A stretch of 42,055 nucleotides of DNA from Streptobacillus notomytis (GTDB lineage: Bacteria > Fusobacteriota > Fusobacteriia > Fusobacteriales > Leptotrichiaceae): contig LJRV01000508.1 in NCBI GenBank assembly GCA_001612575.1, positions 1 through 42,055 of the forward strand, given 5' to 3'. Positions 22,823 through 40,206 of the stretch are shown piece by piece (within the stretch, counting starts at the first letter, position 1; each line of letters opens with the position of its first letter). The position numbers were made by a program, and so were the translations under genes. The notes under the pieces are model-generated. The model saw only the letters and a program-made list of their open reading frames with translations, did no database searches and was not told the origin of the DNA.

Positions 22823-22854
22823 AATGGGCGTAAATATTGTTTATCGCCCATTTT
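22821..22854. terminator. Bidirectional terminator
   Basis: AAAATGGGCG (22821-22830) pairs perfectly with CGCCCATTTT (22845-22854). It has the most GC-rich stem in this part of the window and overlaps the stop region of both convergent genes. Confidence 0.85.
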
Positions 22855-23449
22855 AAAATGTATAACCTGCTTTTAATCCAAAATATCCTTGTAATATATC
22901 TACAAAAAGCCCTACATTATATTTATCATTTATTTTAGTTCCTACAGTAACATTACTTTCAGGTATAAAATCATAAATTACACTTATTTTTTTACTTTCA
23001 GCATCTTTACTACTACTATTATTTAAGTTCATAAATGTTCCCATTCCTATTAAACCATCTATACCTGTATAAAACTTAACATTTTCTCTTATATTATAAT
23101 TAAACTCAAAACCAGCACCTGCAGTAATTCCTAAAAAAAAGAAGATATTTTTTGCTATATGTGATATATTAAGTAATTTAATTCTTGGACCAAAATTAAT
23201 ATCACATTTTTCATTAATTTTCAATTTCCAATCAGAAGAAAATTCAATAAATCCTTTACTTTCTCCACCATAATAATGTGTAACCTTTGTTCCATTAGGT
23301 TCTGTTGCTTTTTCATTTCCTTCATTTGAAAACGTTGAATCAACTGCAACTTTTCCACCCAGTCCCATTTCAAGTCTGTATTTGGGCCCCAAAATATTTA
23401 AAGAAAGTGAGATTATACCTAATAATGGTATCATTAATAATTTTTTCAT
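22853..23449 (-). CDS. Small outer-membrane beta-barrel-like protein with a poly-G promoter
   Basis: The 198-residue product has a Sec signal peptide (MKKLLMIPLLGIISLSLN), alternating polar and hydrophobic strands, and the C-terminal barrel signal GLKAGYTF ending in Phe. It is a paralogue of the protein at 14861: both start the mature part with a GPK/GPR-(x)-R/I-E-G-x-G pattern and end in a G-(x)2-AGYTF. A polar loop (about residues 40-65) and a Ser/Lys-rich loop (about 150) would face outwards. Its promoter contains an 11-G spacer run, so expression is probably phase-variable. The ATG at 23449 is about 25 nt from the predicted transcription start. Confidence 0.8.
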   Translation of the reverse strand: MKKLLMIPLLGIISLSLNILGPKYRLEMGLGGKVAVDSTFSNEGNEKATEPNGTKVTHYYGGESKGFIEFSSDWKLKINEKCDINFGPRIKLLNISHIAKNIFFFLGITAGAGFEFNYNIRENVKFYTGIDGLIGMGTFMNLNNSSSKDAESKKISVIYDFIPESNVTVGTKINDKYNVGLFVDILQGYFGLKAGYTF

Positions 23450-23481: not shown

Positions 23482-23513
23482 ATTATACCCCCCCCCCCGA
23501 CATATTTTGTCAA
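23482..23513 (-). promoter_or_regulatory. Poly-G spacer promoter of the barrel gene
   Basis: Perfect TTGACA (23508-23513) and perfect TATAAT (23482-23487) are separated by 20 nt. The 11 nt next to the -10 are all G on the minus strand (23488-23498). Slippage in the run would change the spacer; loss of three G gives the 17-nt optimum. Confidence 0.8.
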
Positions 23514-30763: not shown

Positions 30764-30792
30764 ATTTTATCATACTTTAAATCAAATTGCAA
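30764..30792 (-). promoter_or_regulatory. rpsF promoter overlapping the end of an adhesin gene
   Basis: TTGCAA (30787-30792), 17-nt spacer and TAAAAT (30764-30769). The -35 lies within the last codons of the adhesin ORF ending at 30782, and no terminator is visible between the two genes. Confidence 0.6.
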
Positions 30793-32569
30793 ATATTTTA
30801 TTACTTAAACTTTTAATTAATTCCTTTAAATCCGTTAATTCTTTTTTAAGTTTATCATTTGAATCTAATAACTCTTTTATTTTTATATCATGTTCATATA
30901 CTTTCTCATCTAGCATATTTATATTTCCATTTCTATGTAATGTTAACATATCTTTTTTTCTTGTCTCTAATTTATCAAATTGATATCCTATTCCTGCTCC
31001 TAATGATACATGTCCTCTTGTATTTAATGATCCACTTGCCCTATATACTATATTTGCTTTATCATTTATTCCTGATAACCCTAATGCAAAAGCATGTTCT
31101 CCATTATAGTAACCATATGAACCTGACAGGTTATGTCTATGACCTCCTAATGAACTTACCTGTGGTAAGTTTGCCATTGATATTGCACTTGCTACTCCAC
31201 TATTTACCTTTGATATATCTTCTTTTAATTTATCTGATATATCTATACTTACTTCATTTCCCTTTGCTGTTGTTCTTATATATTCTGAACCTCTAATTTT
31301 AAAGTTTAGGCCTCCTGTTTTATTTAAAGTTTGTTTTTCTGTGCTTCCACTATCTCCAGTAAATGATATATTATTATTTCCTATGCCATTTACTGCATTT
31401 ACTACATCTCCTGTTTTAGCTATTTTCTCATTATCATCTGTTTTATATTCAATCTTCCCATTATTTTCTGATTTTGTAATTGTACCTACATTAACCTTTA
31501 AATTGCCACTACCATCCTTTAATATTGTTTTATTATCTATCTTGGTATCTAATGTATATACTTTATTACCATTTGCTCCAGTAGTTGATTTTACTATTAT
31601 TGAAGAATTATTTTCTGATTTTACCTCAGTTATAGCCGCTTTTATTGCATCATCTATATTATTTTTCCCAGTTCCACCTATATTTGTCATATCAATATTA
31701 GCAATATTATCTCCAGTTTTAGTTATTTTAGAGTTTCCACCTAGAATTTTTTTAGTTGAATTAGCTAAATTTTCTAAAGCTTTACTAGTTGAAAAAAGTT
31801 GTGACCCATTTACTGCATCTGTTGAATCTTTAGAAACTTTACCTGATGCAACATTTTTAATCTGTCTTTCACTATCTTTGGCTCCAACTGAAACTTGATG
31901 TCCATCAGTTCCCGCTTCACCTGAAAATCCAGAATAAGTAAAATCTCCTATTTTGGCAGAACTTTCTTGTGTAGCCTTAGAATCTGTTTTAGAACTTGCT
32001 CCTATTGCTATTGCATTATCATAGCTTGCCTCAGAGCTTGCTCCTATTGCTGTTGAACTTTGATTTTTAGCTTTAGAAGCTGAACCTATTGCTGTTGAAA
32101 GTGTTTTACTCGCTTCTGACTGACCACCTATAGCTGTAGCATAACTTTCTTTTGATTTAGCAGAATATCCTATACTAACTGCACTATCTCCAGTACTTTC
32201 TCCACTATACCCTATATTAGTAGCTCCTGTACCACTAGCTTTACCCCCAAAAGACATAGAAGAACTTTTTTCAGCTATTGCTCCATTTCCTATAGCAAAT
32301 GCATTATCTCCATCTGCTTTTGAATTAGATCCTATTGCAACAGCACCTCCATTACTACCCTTATTTCCCCCTTTGTTTGTTTGAGCATTAGTACCTATTG
32401 CAACATCATGTTTCCCTTCTGCATTTGAATTAATACCTAATGCTAAAGAAGATTCTCCATTTGCCTTTGACCCATTTCCTAAAGTTGGATTTGTACTTGA
32501 TGAAGAAGTATCTGCATAAGATATGATAGAAATAAATGCTAATCCTACGAGTAAATTATTTTTTTTCAT
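30782..32569 (-). CDS. Trimeric autotransporter adhesin (YadA-like), 595 aa
   Basis: A type Vc secreted adhesin. It has a signal peptide (MKKNNLLVGLAFISIISYA, cleaved near residue 19) and a YadA head of 14-residue AIGxxSxAxGxxSxA-type repeats (about 25-230). A neck with the motif SKDSTDAVNGSQLF follows near 245, then a short stalk (to about 455) and the four-strand YadA anchor. The anchor contains NLPQVSSLGGHRHNLSGSYGYYNGEHAFALGLSG and ends at GYQF (about 531); only part is quoted in words here. A 64-residue coiled-coil tail follows the barrel (residues 532-595). It is the shortest of the four adhesins. Its promoter has a fixed 17-nt spacer, and only a weak Shine-Dalgarno (AAAGAA) precedes the ATG. 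Confidence 0.9.
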   Translation of the reverse strand: MKKNNLLVGLAFISIISYADTSSSSTNPTLGNGSKANGESSLALGINSNAEGKHDVAIGTNAQTNKGGNKGSNGGAVAIGSNSKADGDNAFAIGNGAIAEKSSSMSFGGKASGTGATNIGYSGESTGDSAVSIGYSAKSKESYATAIGGQSEASKTLSTAIGSASKAKNQSSTAIGASSEASYDNAIAIGASSKTDSKATQESSAKIGDFTYSGFSGEAGTDGHQVSVGAKDSERQIKNVASGKVSKDSTDAVNGSQLFSTSKALENLANSTKKILGGNSKITKTGDNIANIDMTNIGGTGKNNIDDAIKAAITEVKSENNSSIIVKSTTGANGNKVYTLDTKIDNKTILKDGSGNLKVNVGTITKSENNGKIEYKTDDNEKIAKTGDVVNAVNGIGNNNISFTGDSGSTEKQTLNKTGGLNFKIRGSEYIRTTAKGNEVSIDISDKLKEDISKVNSGVASAISMANLPQVSSLGGHRHNLSGSYGYYNGEHAFALGLSGINDKANIVYRASGSLNTRGHVSLGAGIGYQFDKLETRKKDMLTLHRNGNINMLDEKVYEHDIKIKELLDSNDKLKKELTDLKELIKSLSNKIFAI

Positions 32570-32613
32570 TATTCTTTTAGTATAATATAGTTAGTTTTTA
32601 AACTGTATTATAG

Positions 32614-32621
32614 CCCTCCTT
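32614..32621 (-). promoter_or_regulatory. Distal Shine-Dalgarno-like element in adhesin leader
   Basis: AAGGAGGG on the minus strand lies about 45 nt before the ATG at 32569, too far for direct initiation, and no start codon follows it at a usable distance. A similar element occurs 38 nt before the adhesin at 37033 (40106-40113). It may be a ribosome standby site. Confidence 0.3.
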
Positions 32622-32680
32622 ATCCTATATATATTTATATTTTTATTTTCAAAAGATATTTTTTTAACAATGACTTCAAT

Positions 32681-32709
32681 ATTATACCTACCCTCCATTA
32701 TTTTGTCAA
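32681..32709 (-). promoter_or_regulatory. Promoter of the 595-aa adhesin, fixed 17-nt spacer
   Basis: Perfect TTGACA (32704-32709), 17-nt spacer and perfect TATAAT (32681-32686). The spacer is G-rich next to the -10 (GGAGGGTAGG) but interrupted, so it looks like a broken-up homopolymer. Confidence 0.75.
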
Positions 32710-32851
32710 TATAATTTGTACGCTTTTTTCACAAATTAAAAAGAATTAACTCCTTTACAGAAATTAATCCTCATTTTAATCACCATTCTCCTATTTAAAG
32801 ACCTTCATTTGTTACCACCATTATATATATAAAGTTTCACAAATATTTTAC

Positions 32852-35800
32852 CTACTTATTTTTTTGCATTAATATTTCTAATTCATTAATTCTATTTTCT
32901 AAAGTTTTATTATTTTCTTCAAGAACTTTAACTTTTTCTTCAAGAACTTTGAATTCTTTATCTAATTCATAAACTTTTTCATCAAGTAGATTAATGTTTC
33001 CATTTCTTTGTAATTTTAACATCTCTTTATTTCTATTTCCTACACTCTCAAATTGATATCCAAGTCCTGCACCTAGTGATATATGTCCTCTAGTATTTAA
33101 TGATCCACTTGCTCTATATACTAAATTAGCTCTATCATTCATTCCTGATAATCCTATTGCAAATGCATGTTCTCCATTGTAGTATCCATATGAACCTGAC
33201 AGGTTATGTCCAATACCACTCATCTGTGATAAATTGGCCATTGCTATTGCATTTGCTACTCCACTATTTGCTGCTATTCCTTTTTCTATATCTTTTTTCG
33301 CCTTATCTGTTAAATCTACCTTAACTTCATTTCCTTTAGCTTCTGTTTTTATATATCCTGAACCACTAATTTTAAAATTTAATCCTCCATCTTTATTTAA
33401 TGATTGTTTATCTGTTTCTCCACTATCTCCACCAAATGATATACTATTATTTCCTAATGCATTTATTGCTTTTGATACTTCTCCTGCATTTGCTACCTTT
33501 TTAGAATCTTCATCACTTAATTTTTCTACTTTACCTCCAGAACTTGATTTTAATTGTGTTGTAGATAAACTAATATCATAAATATTATGTCCTTCATTTG
33601 ATTTTTTAGATGTTAAAGTTACTGGACCTTTAGTCTTATTTGCTTCCTCTCCAGAATTTGCTGTTATATCTGTCTTTAGCGTCTTTGTTGCTTTGTCTAT
33701 CTTATCTGTTAAATCCTTTTTAGTACTTTCTATTTTTTCATCATTTTTTGTTATTTTTTCTTCTAACTCTTTCTTAGTTTCATCTATCTTTTTATCTACT
33801 TCTTTTTTATTATCCTCTATCTTTTTCTCTAATTCTTTCTTAGTCTCATCTATTTTATTTTCTATTTCTTTCTTATTTTTTTCTATTTCTTTCTTACTTT
33901 CATCTATTTTATTCTCTAATTCTTTTTTAGAAGTGTCTATTTTTTTCTCAACTTCATCTAATTGTTTCTTATTTACTGCATCAGTGTCATTTTTTCCATC
34001 ACCAATATTTTTTAAAACTTTACCCCCGTTATCTAATCCATCTTTAGTTATTTTTACTTTATCACTACCATTATTTATAGATATTTCATCTCCAGTAATC
34101 TTAACTTTACCTCCAGAAGTGCCATTAAATTCTGCACTAGTTAAATCTTTTAATGTTTTACTTAATGCATATGTAAAATCTTTTCCAGCTTGTGTAATAC
34201 TTAAATTATCTCCAGCTTTTAATGTTAGTAATTCATCTTTTAATAGTTTTGTTTTATTTTCTCCAGATGAAGTTCCTGTTCCTTCTTTTCCTGCCATTAC
34301 ATTAAATCCATATTCAGCTATTGATTTTGTTATTTTATCATCTAATGATTTTATTGCCTCATGAATTGTATCTTTATTTGTTCCACCTATATTTGTAAAA
34401 GTAAGCTCTCCATTTTCTGCTAAATTTGCATTTCCACCAAAAATACTCTTTGTTTTATTCGCAAATTTACCTAAAATATTATTAGTTGCAAATAGTTGTG
34501 ATCCATTAATTGCATCTGTTGAGTCTTTACTTACTTGCCCTGCTCCAACATACTGTAATTGTCTTTCCTTATTTTTAGATCCTATAGCCACTACATGAGA
34601 AACGTTTGGTGCTGCAAAGTTTCCATATTTTAAATTTTCTATTGTAACATTTAAAGATGCCGCAGGTGTTTTTGTTTCACTTTCTGATCCAATAGCTACA
34701 GATTCATCTACAGTAACTTTTGAATGTCTTCCTATTGCTATAGAGTCTGATTTTAAGGCTTCTGAACTTTGTCCTATTGCTATAGATTTTCCACCTTTTG
34801 CTTTTGCGTATAATCCTAAAGATATATCATTAGTATTTTCTGATACTGCATAGGCTCCTATAGATATTGAATGTTTTCCTTTTGCTTCACTATTATATCC
34901 AAATGCTATAGAATTTTCATCTGAAGATTTACTTTCTTTACCTATAGAAATAGCATTTTTAACTGCTTTTGCATTATCTCCTAAAGCTATTGCTCCATCA
35001 TCTTTTGCCTCAGTATTTGTTCCAATAGCTATACTATGTTCTTTTGAACTTTTTGAACTTTTACCTATAGCAATACCATTTATTGCATCTTCTTCCACTT
35101 TTGAACTAACTCCTATTGCAATAGAACCAGATGCTTTAGACATAGCATTTCCACCTATAGCTATAGCATTCATTGCTGCTGCTTCTGACCATAAACCAAT
35201 AGCTATACCGTAATCTTTTGTTGCCTTTGAATATGATCCTAATGCAATCGTTCTTTCTGCTGTTGTAACAGCTTGATGTCCTATTGATAAAGCATCTAAT
35301 TTTTCTGATCTACTTTCTTTTCCTATAGCTATTGCATGTGCTCCTTCTGATTTAGAATTCGTTCCCACAGCTATACTACTTTCTCCATTTGTCATAGCAG
35401 ATGTTCCAAATGTTATAGAATTACTTTTAAAACTTTGAGCACTTTTACCAATAGAAATAGAACTATCCTCTTTTGACTTAGCTTTTCTTCCTATTGCTAT
35501 AGCTGAGTTTTTTTCTGCAACACTTTCAGATCCTATAGATAATGAATCTGTTCCTTTTGATTCTGCATATCTACCAAGTGATATTGAATAATCATTTGAA
35601 GTCTTAGCACCATATCCTATAGAAATAGAGGCTTCTCCTTCAGAATTAGCATGCATTCCTACTGCTATTGTATGCTTTTTTAAACTCTTAGAATTATATC
35701 CTATTGCAATAGATGCCTCTTCTTTTGCATTAGCATTCATTCCAGCTGTTATAGAATATTTTCCTTCTGCTCCAGCTGCCTCTCCAATTTTACCTAAATT

Positions 35801-36853
35801 ACTACTTTTATCTCCACCATTGTGAGTGCCTGTATTAACATGAAAATATGTTTTTTTATCATCTTCTAGTTTTGTTGCCAAAGCTTTTAATTGAGCCACA
35901 TTTACTGCATCTGTATCTTCTTTTCCTGCTGCTAGTCCCGTTATTTGTCTTGTAACTGTACTTCCATTACCTATTGCTAATGCTGCATGAGTTGATTGCC
36001 ATGCATTTCCTGAAAGAGTTTTATCAGCACTTGGTACATATCCCATTACTCCTTTATCTACAGTTGTCTTTGATTCACTTCCTAAAGCTATTGCTCCCAT
36101 CATTGTTGATTCAGCTTTGTATCCAAAAGATAATGCATTTTCTCCAGAAGCTTGTGCTATATGACCTAAAGCTACTGAATTCTTTCCTGATGCATCTACT
36201 CTCTTTTTGGGATCTGTTTGATACAGTGCATTTCTTTCTCTTGCCGATGATCCTATCGCTATTGCATTTTCTCCACTTGATGTTGCATTTGTTCCTATAG
36301 CTATTGAACCTTTTTCTTTTGCTAATGATGTTACCCCTTGTGCTATAGATTCATTTCCTAATGCTGTTGCACTTCTTCCATATGCCTGTGAATAATACCC
36401 TTCAGCATAACTTCCTGCTCCTATTGCTATAGCTGATGCTTTTGTTGCCCTTGCTTGAAACCCTATACCTACAACAAATACTGCCCCTTTACTTGATGAA
36501 TGACTCCCTAAAGCTACTCCACCCTGTCCTGCATGAGAGAATGCTCCCAGGGCTACTCCTGTCCCTCTTTTTTTTGTAGTATCTAATGTATTCCCTGGTA
36601 CTTTATTATCCAATATTTTGGGTACACCTTTAGGATCATATTCTATTTTGGCTGAATTTCCACGAGTAAATCCATCTGTTCCATCTACTCCTTGTTGATT
36701 TTCTGTTGGATCTTTTTCATAATCCTCTGAATAAGATATATTACTTAAAAATCCACCTGTTATTAAAAAAGCAATAATAAGTCCTTTACTAATATTTATT
36801 TTCCTTTTAAGCCGTTTCTTCAATTCACCTTCTATTTTAAAATTTTTAATCAT
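32852..36853 (-). CDS. Large trimeric autotransporter adhesin, 1333 aa
   Basis: The largest complete adhesin in the window. The N-terminus is a long basic signal region (KIEGELKKRLKRKINISKG, then a hydrophobic core to about residue 47) that does not match the common ESPR consensus. A first YadA head (about 90-300) ends at a neck, TRQITGLAAGKEDTDAVNVAQLK. A second, longer head of 14-residue AIG repeats runs to about 740, followed by a second neck (SKDSTDAINGSQLF, near 770). The stalk contains 11-residue (hendecad) Lys/Glu repeats at about 975-1037. The YadA anchor (about 1194-1268) ends in GYQF and is followed by a 65-residue coiled coil. Its promoter holds a G9 run, so it is probably phase-variable. 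SD: GAAAGTGAT. Confidence 0.9.
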   Translation of the reverse strand: MIKNFKIEGELKKRLKRKINISKGLIIAFLITGGFLSNISYSEDYEKDPTENQQGVDGTDGFTRGNSAKIEYDPKGVPKILDNKVPGNTLDTTKKRGTGVALGAFSHAGQGGVALGSHSSSKGAVFVVGIGFQARATKASAIAIGAGSYAEGYYSQAYGRSATALGNESIAQGVTSLAKEKGSIAIGTNATSSGENAIAIGSSARERNALYQTDPKKRVDASGKNSVALGHIAQASGENALSFGYKAESTMMGAIALGSESKTTVDKGVMGYVPSADKTLSGNAWQSTHAALAIGNGSTVTRQITGLAAGKEDTDAVNVAQLKALATKLEDDKKTYFHVNTGTHNGGDKSSNLGKIGEAAGAEGKYSITAGMNANAKEEASIAIGYNSKSLKKHTIAVGMHANSEGEASISIGYGAKTSNDYSISLGRYAESKGTDSLSIGSESVAEKNSAIAIGRKAKSKEDSSISIGKSAQSFKSNSITFGTSAMTNGESSIAVGTNSKSEGAHAIAIGKESRSEKLDALSIGHQAVTTAERTIALGSYSKATKDYGIAIGLWSEAAAMNAIAIGGNAMSKASGSIAIGVSSKVEEDAINGIAIGKSSKSSKEHSIAIGTNTEAKDDGAIALGDNAKAVKNAISIGKESKSSDENSIAFGYNSEAKGKHSISIGAYAVSENTNDISLGLYAKAKGGKSIAIGQSSEALKSDSIAIGRHSKVTVDESVAIGSESETKTPAASLNVTIENLKYGNFAAPNVSHVVAIGSKNKERQLQYVGAGQVSKDSTDAINGSQLFATNNILGKFANKTKSIFGGNANLAENGELTFTNIGGTNKDTIHEAIKSLDDKITKSIAEYGFNVMAGKEGTGTSSGENKTKLLKDELLTLKAGDNLSITQAGKDFTYALSKTLKDLTSAEFNGTSGGKVKITGDEISINNGSDKVKITKDGLDNGGKVLKNIGDGKNDTDAVNKKQLDEVEKKIDTSKKELENKIDESKKEIEKNKKEIENKIDETKKELEKKIEDNKKEVDKKIDETKKELEEKITKNDEKIESTKKDLTDKIDKATKTLKTDITANSGEEANKTKGPVTLTSKKSNEGHNIYDISLSTTQLKSSSGGKVEKLSDEDSKKVANAGEVSKAINALGNNSISFGGDSGETDKQSLNKDGGLNFKISGSGYIKTEAKGNEVKVDLTDKAKKDIEKGIAANSGVANAIAMANLSQMSGIGHNLSGSYGYYNGEHAFAIGLSGMNDRANLVYRASGSLNTRGHISLGAGLGYQFESVGNRNKEMLKLQRNGNINLLDEKVYELDKEFKVLEEKVKVLEENNKTLENRINELEILMQKNK
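33743..33928 (-). repeat. Hendecad (33-bp unit) repeats coding for coiled-coil stalk
   Basis: Units such as KKELENKIDES, KKEIENKIDET, KKELEKKIEDN, KKEVDKKIDET and KKELEEKITKN follow each other in frame, with one 7-residue unit (KKEIEKN) after the first. The eleven-residue period at protein level corresponds to 33-bp DNA repeats. Confidence 0.8.
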
Positions 36854-36870
36854 ATCACTTTCTACCGTTT

Positions 36871-36888
36871 AAATTATTTTTTTCACAA
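36871..36888 (-). promoter_or_regulatory. Conserved 18-nt leader element
   Basis: TTGTGAAAAAAATAATTT on the minus strand is repeated without mismatch at 40148-40165, in both cases starting 12 nt after the -10 hexamer. A looser copy (TTGTTAAAAAAATA) is in the leader of the 595-aa adhesin near 32657-32670. It marks the early transcribed region of these adhesin genes and could be a binding site or an mRNA-stability element. Confidence 0.55.
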
Positions 36889-36900
36889 TTTATCTGTAAA

Positions 36901-36932
36901 AGTATACCCCCCCCCACACGATATTTTGTCAA
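36901..36932 (-). promoter_or_regulatory. Poly-G spacer promoter of the 1333-aa adhesin
   Basis: Perfect TTGACA (36927-36932) and TATACT (36901-36906) are separated by 20 nt. The 9 nt next to the -10 are all G on the minus strand (36907-36915). Loss of three G would give a 17-nt spacer. Confidence 0.8.
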
Positions 36933-37032
36933 TATATATTTTCTTTTAAAATATATATTAACTTTTGTATTTAAATATTTATCATACTTTGAAGCTATTA
37001 AAAAAATATAGAAATAGTTCTTAATATATTTC

Positions 37033-40000
37033 CTATTTTTTCATTAACTCTTTTACTAACTTTTCTAATTCAAGAATCCTAGTTTCTAAAATTTTATTAT
37101 TTTCCTTAAGAACTTTAACCTCATTATCACTTTCTGATACACTCTTAAATTGATATCCAAGTCCTGCACCTAAAGCTATATGTCCTTTAGTATTTAATGA
37201 TCCCCTTGCTCTATATACTAAATTACCTACATTATTCATTCCTGATAATCCTATTGCAAATGCATGTTCTCCGTTATAGTATCCATATGAACCTGACAGG
37301 TTATGTCCTCTTCCACTTATATGTGCTAAATTTGACATTGCTATCGCATTTGCGACTCCACTATTTGCTGCTATTCCTTTTGCTATGCTATCTTTAATCT
37401 TATCTGACAAGTCTATATTTACAACATTTCCACTTGCTTTTGTTGTAATATATTCTGACCCTTTAATATTAAATTTCATTCCACCAGATTTATTTAATGT
37501 TTGATTTTCTGTACTTCCACTATCCCCAACTAACGATAATGTATTATTGCCTAATTCATCTAATTGTTTTTTATTTACAGCATCTTTTTCTTCTACTCCG
37601 TCTAATACATTACTTATTCTTTTATTATTCATATCTAGTCCATTACTATCTAATTTTGCTCCATTAGTTATTCCTATACTATCAACTTTAAGATTCTTAT
37701 TTAAGCCTATATCTAACTTATTTCCTAATGCTTCTGTCCTTATATTTTCATCTCCCATTATTAATAGAGTACTTCCTAATTTTTGAATACTTGTTTCTCC
37801 AGAATCTCCTTTAAATTTTAGTCCTTTATTATCTATCGTATCTTTTGCATTTTTTCCTGCTTTTATATCTTCTTTTACTTTATCTGTTAAATCTATCTCT
37901 ACTTTATTTCCACTTGCCTTTGTTTCTATGTACTCACTATTTTCTTTTTTTACTATATCAAATTTAATTTCATTACTCTTTCCTTGATTTTGATTTCCTG
38001 TATTTATATTATTATTTGTAATATCCTTTCCTATCTTTTGTCCGTCTGTAATTGTATTATTATCCCCACCTAGTTTAATTTCAGTATTTTCTATTTTATT
38101 TACTCTTTTATCTATATTTTCTATTTTATCTCCTAATGATTTTATAGCATCATTAATGTTATTCTTTCCTGTATCTCCAATATTAGTTATTGTAAGTTTA
38201 CCATTTTGCATTATATTTGAACTTCCACCTAAAATAGTTTTATATGAATTAGCTAATTCTGATAAAACATTATTAGTTGCAAATAATTGTGAACCATTTA
38301 TAGCATCTGTTGATTCTTTACTTATTTGTCCTGCTGCTACATACTGTAATTGTCTTTCTCTATCCTTATACCCTATAGATAATACTGAAAAAGGTATTTT
38401 ACCTGCAAATTCCCCATATTTTATTCCATTTATTTCAACTTCTTTTGTTGCAACTGCTCTTGTTGTTTCACTTTCTGCTCCTAATGCTACTGATTTTTCT
38501 ACATTAGCCTTAGATAATTGTCCTAATGCTAGAGTATGAGTAGATGAAGAAGTTGAACTAAGTCCTAATGCTATAGAAGCAAAACCTGATGAATTTGCAT
38601 TTGATCCTAATGCTATTGATGTAATACCTGATGATTTAGCATCTACTCCTAAAGCCATTGATGTAATACCAAAAGCTTTAGAATCTATACCCATTGCTAT
38701 TGAATTAATTCCTGATGAAGCTGATGATTTACCAATAGCTATGCTATTAAGACCAGATGCTTTAGCTTTCATTCCTATCGCTATAGATCCATCTCCAGTT
38801 GCACCAGCAGCATCTCCTATTTTACCTAAATTATTATCTTTATCTCCCGTATCTTTGTTTGTTCCTGTATTTACATGGAAATATGTTTTATTTTCTTCTT
38901 CAAATTTCTTATGTAATGATTTTAATTGAGCTACATTTACTGCATCTGTATCTTCTTTTCCTGCTGCTAGTCCTGTTATTTGTCTTGTTATTCCATTTTC
39001 TACATCTCCAATTGAAACTTCTCCATATGTCGCTTCCCATGCATTTACAATTTTAGAATATTCAGTATATTTTTGATTAATTTCTGTGTTTTTATTTATA
39101 ATTTTATTATTTAAATCTGATAGCTTGTTTTTTTCATCTTCTGTTCTTGAGTTATAGTCTTTATCAATTATAACCTTGGCGTCTTTATTAAGAGCAGCTT
39201 TTTCTGTTTTTAATCTATTTATTTCTTCTTTTAAACTTGTATATTTAGTTTTATTATCTTCTGATAATTGATCTTCTAATCTAACTACCTTATTTGTAAA
39301 CATATCATAGCCAAGTCTATCACTTCTTTTCCTCGCTATAGAACTTGAACCAAGTGCTGTTGAGTAGTTTTCTTCTACCTTTGCCTTATTTCCTATTGCT
39401 GTTGAAAAACTTAAATTTTCAGATGTACTACTTTCATTACCTATAACTACATTACCATATGAATATATTCCATTTGAATCTGCCTTATATCCTATAGCAA
39501 CACTACGACCCCTTGAATGCGAGTTTTCTCCAAGTGCTACACTTTTACCATAACCTACTGCTTCTTTACCTATACCTATAGAATCTGAATTTGCTTCACT
39601 CTTATACCCTAAAGAAATTGCACCTATTCCATCTGTTTTAGTTTGAGTTCCTATGGCTATACCATATTTTGTTCCAGCATTTGCTTCATTTCCTATAGCT
39701 ATTGCATCAATTGCTGTAGCTTTAGCTTTTGTTCCTATAGCCACTGTATTTTCAACATCATTACTAAGATTTTGAGTTGATCCAGCATGTGCCTCATTTC
39801 CTATAGCTACTCCATTAGTACCTCTTGATACGGAACTAGATCCTATTGCTATAGCCTTTTTATCTTCTTCTGCTTTAGAATCTTTACCTATTTGTACACT
39901 AGATTTATCAGTAGTAAGAGTATTAATTCCAACAACCATTGATTTTTCTAATTTTAAATCTGAATTCCTCCCTAAATTTATATTAGACTTCAAATTATTT

Positions 40001-40068
40001 CCATTATCTCTAGTATAAGATAAAATAGAAATGAGAGCTAAAACTGTAATTAAATTCTTTTTCTTCAT
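37033..40068 (-). CDS. Trimeric autotransporter adhesin, 1011 aa
   Basis: Signal peptide MKKKNLITVLALISILSYT (cleavage near residue 19), then a YadA head (about 60-250). An inserted charged coiled-coil segment follows (about 256-340; LEDQLSEDNKTKYTSLKEEI onwards). The first neck TRQITGLAAGKEDTDAVNVAQLK is near 361, a second head (about 410-540) comes next, and a neck with SKESTDAINGSQLF near 580. A stalk with repeated IENxxxK and ETKASGNKVEIDL units leads to the YadA anchor (about 903-974), ending in GYQF. The tail after the barrel is 37 residues and lacks the RNGNINLLDEKVYEL block of its siblings. The promoter has a fixed 17-nt spacer. GGGAGA lies before the ATG. Confidence 0.9.
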   Translation of the reverse strand: MKKKNLITVLALISILSYTRDNGNNLKSNINLGRNSDLKLEKSMVVGINTLTTDKSSVQIGKDSKAEEDKKAIAIGSSSVSRGTNGVAIGNEAHAGSTQNLSNDVENTVAIGTKAKATAIDAIAIGNEANAGTKYGIAIGTQTKTDGIGAISLGYKSEANSDSIGIGKEAVGYGKSVALGENSHSRGRSVAIGYKADSNGIYSYGNVVIGNESSTSENLSFSTAIGNKAKVEENYSTALGSSSIARKRSDRLGYDMFTNKVVRLEDQLSEDNKTKYTSLKEEINRLKTEKAALNKDAKVIIDKDYNSRTEDEKNKLSDLNNKIINKNTEINQKYTEYSKIVNAWEATYGEVSIGDVENGITRQITGLAAGKEDTDAVNVAQLKSLHKKFEEENKTYFHVNTGTNKDTGDKDNNLGKIGDAAGATGDGSIAIGMKAKASGLNSIAIGKSSASSGINSIAMGIDSKAFGITSMALGVDAKSSGITSIALGSNANSSGFASIALGLSSTSSSTHTLALGQLSKANVEKSVALGAESETTRAVATKEVEINGIKYGEFAGKIPFSVLSIGYKDRERQLQYVAAGQISKESTDAINGSQLFATNNVLSELANSYKTILGGSSNIMQNGKLTITNIGDTGKNNINDAIKSLGDKIENIDKRVNKIENTEIKLGGDNNTITDGQKIGKDITNNNINTGNQNQGKSNEIKFDIVKKENSEYIETKASGNKVEIDLTDKVKEDIKAGKNAKDTIDNKGLKFKGDSGETSIQKLGSTLLIMGDENIRTEALGNKLDIGLNKNLKVDSIGITNGAKLDSNGLDMNNKRISNVLDGVEEKDAVNKKQLDELGNNTLSLVGDSGSTENQTLNKSGGMKFNIKGSEYITTKASGNVVNIDLSDKIKDSIAKGIAANSGVANAIAMSNLAHISGRGHNLSGSYGYYNGEHAFAIGLSGMNNVGNLVYRARGSLNTKGHIALGAGLGYQFKSVSESDNEVKVLKENNKILETRILELEKLVKELMKK

Positions 40069-40177: not shown

Positions 40178-40206
40178 AGTATACCTTCATCTCTAAAATT
40201 AGTCAA
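40178..40206 (-). promoter_or_regulatory. Promoter of the 1011-aa adhesin, fixed 17-nt spacer
   Basis: TTGACT (40201-40206), 17-nt spacer and TATACT (40178-40183) on the minus strand. The -10 and the following leader match the promoter at 36901, but there is no G run. Confidence 0.7.

What the first reader, a model, noticed from the sequence alone, without database searches (positions are those of the whole stretch)
36901..36932. G9 tract inside the promoter spacer of the largest adhesin
The 1333-aa adhesin has TTGACA and TATACT 20 nt apart, with nine G directly next to the -10. The arrangement is the same as at 23488 but with a different run length and a different 11-nt remainder. Switching a giant adhesin at transcription level would give the population bound and unbound variants.
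Basis: partly seen in the sequence, partly recalled or inferred. Interest (0 to 1): 0.85.

Follow-up and report, generated by a model that had tools for sequence, protein, structure and literature searches.

The report
Slippery G-run promoter switching surface adhesins
A run of nine Gs inside the promoter of a large surface adhesin in a Streptobacillus (the rat-bite-fever genus) is one of 20-34 near-identical slippery promoters per genome (in three of the four genomes searched) that sit almost only in front of surface proteins, so the bacterium probably turns its surface proteins on and off at random by gaining or losing single bases.

Summary
In detail: on the minus strand TTGACA-AAATATCGTGT-G9-TATACT (36932-36901, spacer 20) lies upstream of a 1333-aa YadA-type trimeric autotransporter adhesin. 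It is not isolated. The genome (a Streptobacillus; sister genome G001 is S. moniliformis DSM 12112) has 27 G-runs of 8 or more; 23 sit in exactly this position, before surface-type genes of several unrelated families. S. moniliformis has 34. Orthologues of this adhesin have no indel in the 4002-nt gene (99.2-99.4% identical), yet spacers of 20, 17 and 16. Seven of nine orthologous tracts differ in length. Ordinary promoters in these genomes peak at 17 and none has 19; pure G-run promoters peak at 19; G-rich but interrupted derivatives, including that of the next adhesin in this window, are all 16-17. Best reading: slipped-strand transcriptional phase variation of the porA/Tp0126 kind, used as the main surface switch of the genus, with this copy predicted OFF or weak. 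The mechanism is known in kind; I found no paper describing it in Streptobacillus. Switching within a population, the transcription start and expression were not testable here.

The parts
36927..36932 (-). -35 hexamer TTGACA of the 1333-aa adhesin promoter
36916..36926 (-). 11-nt non-run part of the spacer, AAATATCGTGT; the GTGT next to the run is absent from both orthologues
36907..36915 (-). G9 tract directly upstream of the -10
36901..36906 (-). -10 hexamer TATACT; total spacer 20 nt here, 17 in S. moniliformis, 16 in G002
32852..36853 (-). 1333-aa YadA-type trimeric autotransporter adhesin (head, stalk, anchor)
23482..23513 (-). second switch promoter TTGACA-AAATATGTC-G11-TATAAT, spacer 20 (19 in S. 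moniliformis)
22853..23449 (-). 198-aa small outer-membrane-type protein of the 'GPRYRLE' family, behind the second switch
32681..32709 (-). interrupted ('frozen') version of the same promoter, TTGACA-AAATAATGGAGGGTAGG-TATAAT, spacer exactly 17; identical in S. moniliformis
30782..32569 (-). 595-aa YadA-type adhesin behind the frozen promoter, predicted constitutive
40178..40206 (-). tract-free promoter-like pair TTGACT-17 nt-TATACT of the neighbouring adhesin; internal contrast
   Evidence: read by eye
37033..40068 (-). 1011-aa YadA-type adhesin behind the tract-free pair

Best explanation
The tract is the moving part of a transcriptional phase-variation switch. DNA polymerase slippage adds or removes Gs and so changes the -35/-10 distance of an otherwise consensus sigma-70-type promoter; at about 17 nt (16-18) the adhesin is transcribed, further away it is weak or silent. 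Here the spacer is 20 (OFF or very weak); in S. moniliformis DSM 12112 it is 17 (ON) and in G002 16 (ON or intermediate). The GTGT next to the run means this copy needs G6 to reach 17, so it should be biased to OFF. The same cassette stands before 20-34 mostly surface-type genes in three of the four genomes searched, giving combinatorial surface variation; cassettes become locked when other bases interrupt the run at 16-17 nt. Shown: architecture, enrichment, gene families, length differences between orthologues, the 16-17 nt interrupted class. Inferred: slippage within populations, which length is ON, the effect on expression and binding.
For: Of 27 G-runs of 8 or more, 23 lie between TTGACA and a TATAAT-like hexamer; 34 of 38 G9+ runs in S. 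moniliformis; 20 in G002. Downstream ORFs fall into six main surface-type families. Spacer 20/17/16 in orthologues with no gap column in the 4002-nt ORF; 7 of 9 orthologous tracts differ in length. Ordinary promoters: 63/129 at 17, 0 at 19; pure G runs 24/72 at 19; interrupted G-rich spacers 8/8 at 16-17, seven of these eight before the same families. Frozen neighbour promoter in this window, 17 nt. Precedents Tp0126 and porA with optimum 17 are described in PMC7864442.
Against: No within-isolate data and no mapped transcription start. Pure-G promoters peak at 19, so either most are OFF in the sequenced genomes or G-run spacers have a longer optimum. MutS and MutL are present, so slippage is not raised by loss of mismatch repair. 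Single-base length differences may include consensus error; the 'interrupted' class was defined after some members had been seen.
Confidence: 0.86

Rival explanations
1. Phase variation is real but a G-run spacer has a longer optimum (18-19 nt), because poly(dG) is stiff and A-like, so 19 nt is ON and this 20-nt copy is only slightly reduced.
For: Pure-G promoters peak at 18-19 in three genomes; G-run promoters from other phyla have their larger peak at 18-19.
Against: Interrupted G-rich derivatives before the same families sit at 16-17; Tp0126 and porA are reported optimal at 17 (PMC7864442).
Confidence: 0.25
2. The tract is a static relic: one promoter cassette was copied in front of many surface genes and its length does not switch on a biologically relevant time scale.
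For: The AAATAT next to the -35 is alike at many loci, as expected from copying; no within-population data.
Against: 7 of 9 orthologous tracts differ, including 20/17/16 in an exchanged block with no indel in the 4-kb gene; interrupted copies cluster at 16-17.
Confidence: 0.07
3. Apparent length differences are homopolymer sequencing or assembly errors.
For: G000 has 823 contigs; S. moniliformis was sequenced by 454 plus Sanger.
Against: The GTGT difference is not a homopolymer error; differences of 2-4 nt occur at several loci; the S. moniliformis genome is finished with Sanger reads.
Confidence: 0.05
4. The G run acts by binding a regulator or by an unusual DNA structure, not by spacing.
For: A CRP homologue and tract length act together at some T. 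pallidum tpr promoters (PMC7864442).
Against: The tract always lies between near-consensus hexamers; a single G9 run is not expected to form a standard intramolecular quadruplex (own knowledge); interrupted versions fall at one narrow spacing.
Confidence: 0.08

Closest known systems
Treponema pallidum Tp0126 promoter (poly-G between -35 and -10)
   Same: Poly-G in the spacer upstream of an outer-membrane protein gene; optimum reported at 17 nt in all (PMC7864442)
   Different: One spacer-type locus described there; here 20-34 near-identical cassettes in each of three genomes, before several gene families, in Fusobacteriota
Neisseria meningitidis porA (and fetA, opc) promoter phase variation
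   Same: Homopolymer in the promoter, graded expression with length (PMC7864442, PMC4235727)
   Different: Few promoter loci among mostly frame-based switches (own knowledge); no shared cassette
Mycoplasma hyorhinis vlp poly-A promoter switches (from memory, not tested)
   Same: A homopolymer in each promoter of a family of surface proteins
   Different: Poly-A, one gene family
Campylobacter poly-G/C phasome
   Same: Many poly-G tracts controlling surface structures
   Different: There only about 20% of gene groups have tracts in intergenic regions (PMC6321876); here 85-89% of the G-runs are in promoter spacers

Membership tests
Homopolymer promoter-spacer phase variation (porA/Tp0126 kind) | Mononucleotide run between -35 and -10 hexamers | tested here: met
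Homopolymer promoter-spacer phase variation (porA/Tp0126 kind) | Run length differs between related genomes while flanks are conserved | tested here: met
   20/17/16 with no indel in the 4002-nt ORF; 7 of 9 loci differ
Homopolymer promoter-spacer phase variation (porA/Tp0126 kind) | Reversible length variation within one strain | not testable with these tools
   one genome per species, no reads
Homopolymer promoter-spacer phase variation (porA/Tp0126 kind) | Expression depends on run length with an optimum near 17 nt | tested here: inconclusive
   indirect only: ordinary and interrupted promoters at 16-17, pure runs at 18-19
Homopolymer promoter-spacer phase variation (porA/Tp0126 kind) | Controls a surface-exposed product | tested here: met
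   YadA head, stalk and anchor for this gene; other families by signal-like N-termini only
YadA-type trimeric autotransporter adhesin (gene product) | Head repeats, coiled stalk and C-terminal membrane anchor above Pfam cut-offs | tested here: met
   relatives with solved structures

The most novel reading that the evidence does not exclude
One promoter cassette with a slippery G-run spacer has been placed in front of many surface-protein genes of a bacterial genus (34 switches in S. moniliformis), making random promoter spacing rather than reading-frame switching its dominant surface control; cassettes are then frozen ON by interruptions at 16-17 nt. The same architecture recurs in uncultured gut Bacilli, Clostridia, Saccharibacteria and Spirochaetia.
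Probability: 0.55. Interest if true: 0.75.

Novelty: new member of a known kind. Interest (0 to 1): 0.62.

Why it matters
A 2024 review says that virulence-associated genes have not been described for the sequenced Streptobacillus species (PMC11609424). A promoter-based phasome of adhesins and outer-membrane proteins would be a direct, cheaply testable source of surface variability in this genus and would affect serology, typing and antigen choice. The pure, interrupted and tract-free versions of one promoter also give a natural test of how spacer length and G content set promoter strength.

Tried and rejected
A protein search for P0001 in genome contigs found no relative. AlphaFold of the 198-aa protein without an alignment was uninformative (pLDDT 30). 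Pfam and NCBIfam gave nothing for it. The promoter scanner found nothing above shuffles in 36700-37100, but it allows only 16-18 nt spacers and so cannot see the 20-nt pair. A compensating negative correlation between run length and remainder length was not significant (rho -0.11, p 0.34). Loss of mismatch repair as a cause was rejected: MutS and MutL are present. Within-species variation could not be examined (one genome per species; no metagenome scan).

Full report
WHAT IS THERE. On the minus strand of the window, TTGACA (36932-36927), AAATATCGTGT, nine G (36915-36907) and TATACT (36906-36901) stand before a 1333-aa ORF whose ATG is 53 nt after the tract. The protein has YadA head repeats, stalk and membrane anchor above Pfam cut-offs and matches solved trimeric autotransporters. 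Both spacers are 20 nt.

ORGANISM. The nearest genomes include G001, whose second contig is identical to plasmid pSMON01 and whose chromosome is 1,662,578 bp, the published size for Streptobacillus moniliformis DSM 12112 (PMC3035246). G000 is 1.73 Mb in 823 contigs, 99.99% complete.

NOT ISOLATED. G000 has 27 G-runs of 8 or more; about 0.04 runs of 9 or more are expected by composition, 26 are seen. Twenty-three of the 27 lie in the -35/-10 spacer at or within 2 nt of the -10. S. moniliformis has 38 runs of 9 or more, 34 in this position; G002 has 20 such promoters; G003 only 2. The exact consensus pattern counts 19, 19, 11 and 1 in these four and 0-2 in 96 genomes outside the genus; the reversed pattern counts 0. 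The other four runs of G000 are two near the start of OMP-like genes, one inside an OMP-like gene and one between Shine-Dalgarno and ATG.

WHAT IS CONTROLLED. Downstream ORFs of all tracts cluster into six families: small OMP-like 'GPRYRLE' (28 members), YadA-type adhesins (26), 'INEDIKKI' (10), 'AEYYVKND' (7), 'YYDLIINQRLSV' (7) and a small sixth family (4), plus three singletons (the counts span four genomes and include the few non-promoter tracts). Only the adhesins have Pfam support; the others are called surface-type from signal-like N-termini and, for the first family, an aromatic C-terminus.

DOES THE LENGTH VARY. Orthologues of the 1333-aa gene have spacer 20 (G000), 17 (S. moniliformis) and 16 (G002). 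The 4002-nt gene is 99.2-99.4% identical with no gap column in any pair. This block (about 31.4-37.3 kb against S. moniliformis, 32.7-37.3 kb against G002) is mostly 98-100% identical while the region next to it is 85-89%, so the adhesin has probably been exchanged between species recently, and the spacer already has three lengths. Over nine orthologous loci with well-matched flanks, seven differ in spacer length (three of the loci match well on one side only).

WHICH LENGTH IS ON. In G000, S. moniliformis and G002 ordinary TTGACA/TATAAT pairs peak at 17 nt (63 of 129) with none at 19; pure G-run promoters peak at 19 (24 of 72); G-rich spacers broken by other bases are all at 16-17 (8 of 8). 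In S. moniliformis alone: 14/30 against 0/43 at 19 nt, p 4e-7. Seven of the eight interrupted promoters precede members of the same families (one of them an apparently broken copy); the eighth precedes a signal-like protein without a match. Caveats: the lists hold chance pairs, orthologues are counted more than once, and the interrupted class was defined after seeing examples. The simplest reading is that 16-18 is ON, that interruptions lock promoters there, and that most pure-run promoters in these genomes are OFF or weak. The alternative is that G-run spacers have a longer optimum.

INTERNAL CONTROLS IN THE WINDOW. The next adhesin gene (595 aa) has TTGACA-AAATAATGGAGGGTAGG-TATAAT, 17 nt, conserved in S. 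moniliformis; the previous adhesin (1011 aa) has TTGACT-17 nt-TATACT without a tract. Three neighbouring adhesins thus show the switching, locked and tract-free forms. The GTGT beside the run in G000 means that G6 would be needed for 17 nt, so this copy is predicted to be biased to OFF.

MECHANISM STATUS. Shown: architecture, enrichment, gene classes, length differences between genomes. Inferred: slippage within populations, dependence of transcription on length, effect on binding. MutS and MutL are present by family search.

COMPARISON. It works like porA and Tp0126, for which length-dependent transcription with a 17-nt optimum is reported (PMC7864442). The sequence-level features that could be tested are met; the within-strain feature could not be tested and the expression feature is only indirect. 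Searches for Streptobacillus with phase variation, homopolymers or slipped-strand found no description; the library lacks most subscription papers. In Campylobacter only about 20% of phase-variable gene groups have intergenic tracts (PMC6321876); here 85-89% of the G-runs are in promoter spacers.

VERDICT. Observation confirmed, interpretation supported and much enlarged. Known in kind, apparently undescribed in this genus.

Noticed in passing
L084-L200 (genome-contig scan): The exact promoter TTGACA-n-G8+-TATAAT occurs in at least 117 stretches, mostly from gut MAGs (Bacilli, Clostridia, Saccharibacteria, Spirochaetia; also Streptococcus, Helicobacter); 84 of 119 downstream ORFs have signal-like N-termini. 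Spacers are bimodal (15-16 and 18-20) with a dip at 17.
   Followed up: partly
window 31400-37300: Mosaic exchange block: adhesin region mostly 98-100% identical to S. moniliformis and (from 32.7 kb) to G002, against 85-89% in the adjoining region.
   Followed up: partly
L039 (two runs), L049, L046: Four G-runs outside promoter spacers: two near the start of OMP-like genes and one inside an OMP-like gene (possible frame switches), one between Shine-Dalgarno and ATG (possible translation-initiation switch).
   Followed up: no
window 36916-36919; L285 (G002:C16:16681-16712): Upstream edges of some runs read GTGT or GTGTGTGT, as if Gs had been replaced by T; this may limit slippage or shift the reachable spacer range.
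   Followed up: no
G003 (same genus): One Streptobacillus relative has only two such promoters although it carries many YadA-type adhesins.
   Followed up: no
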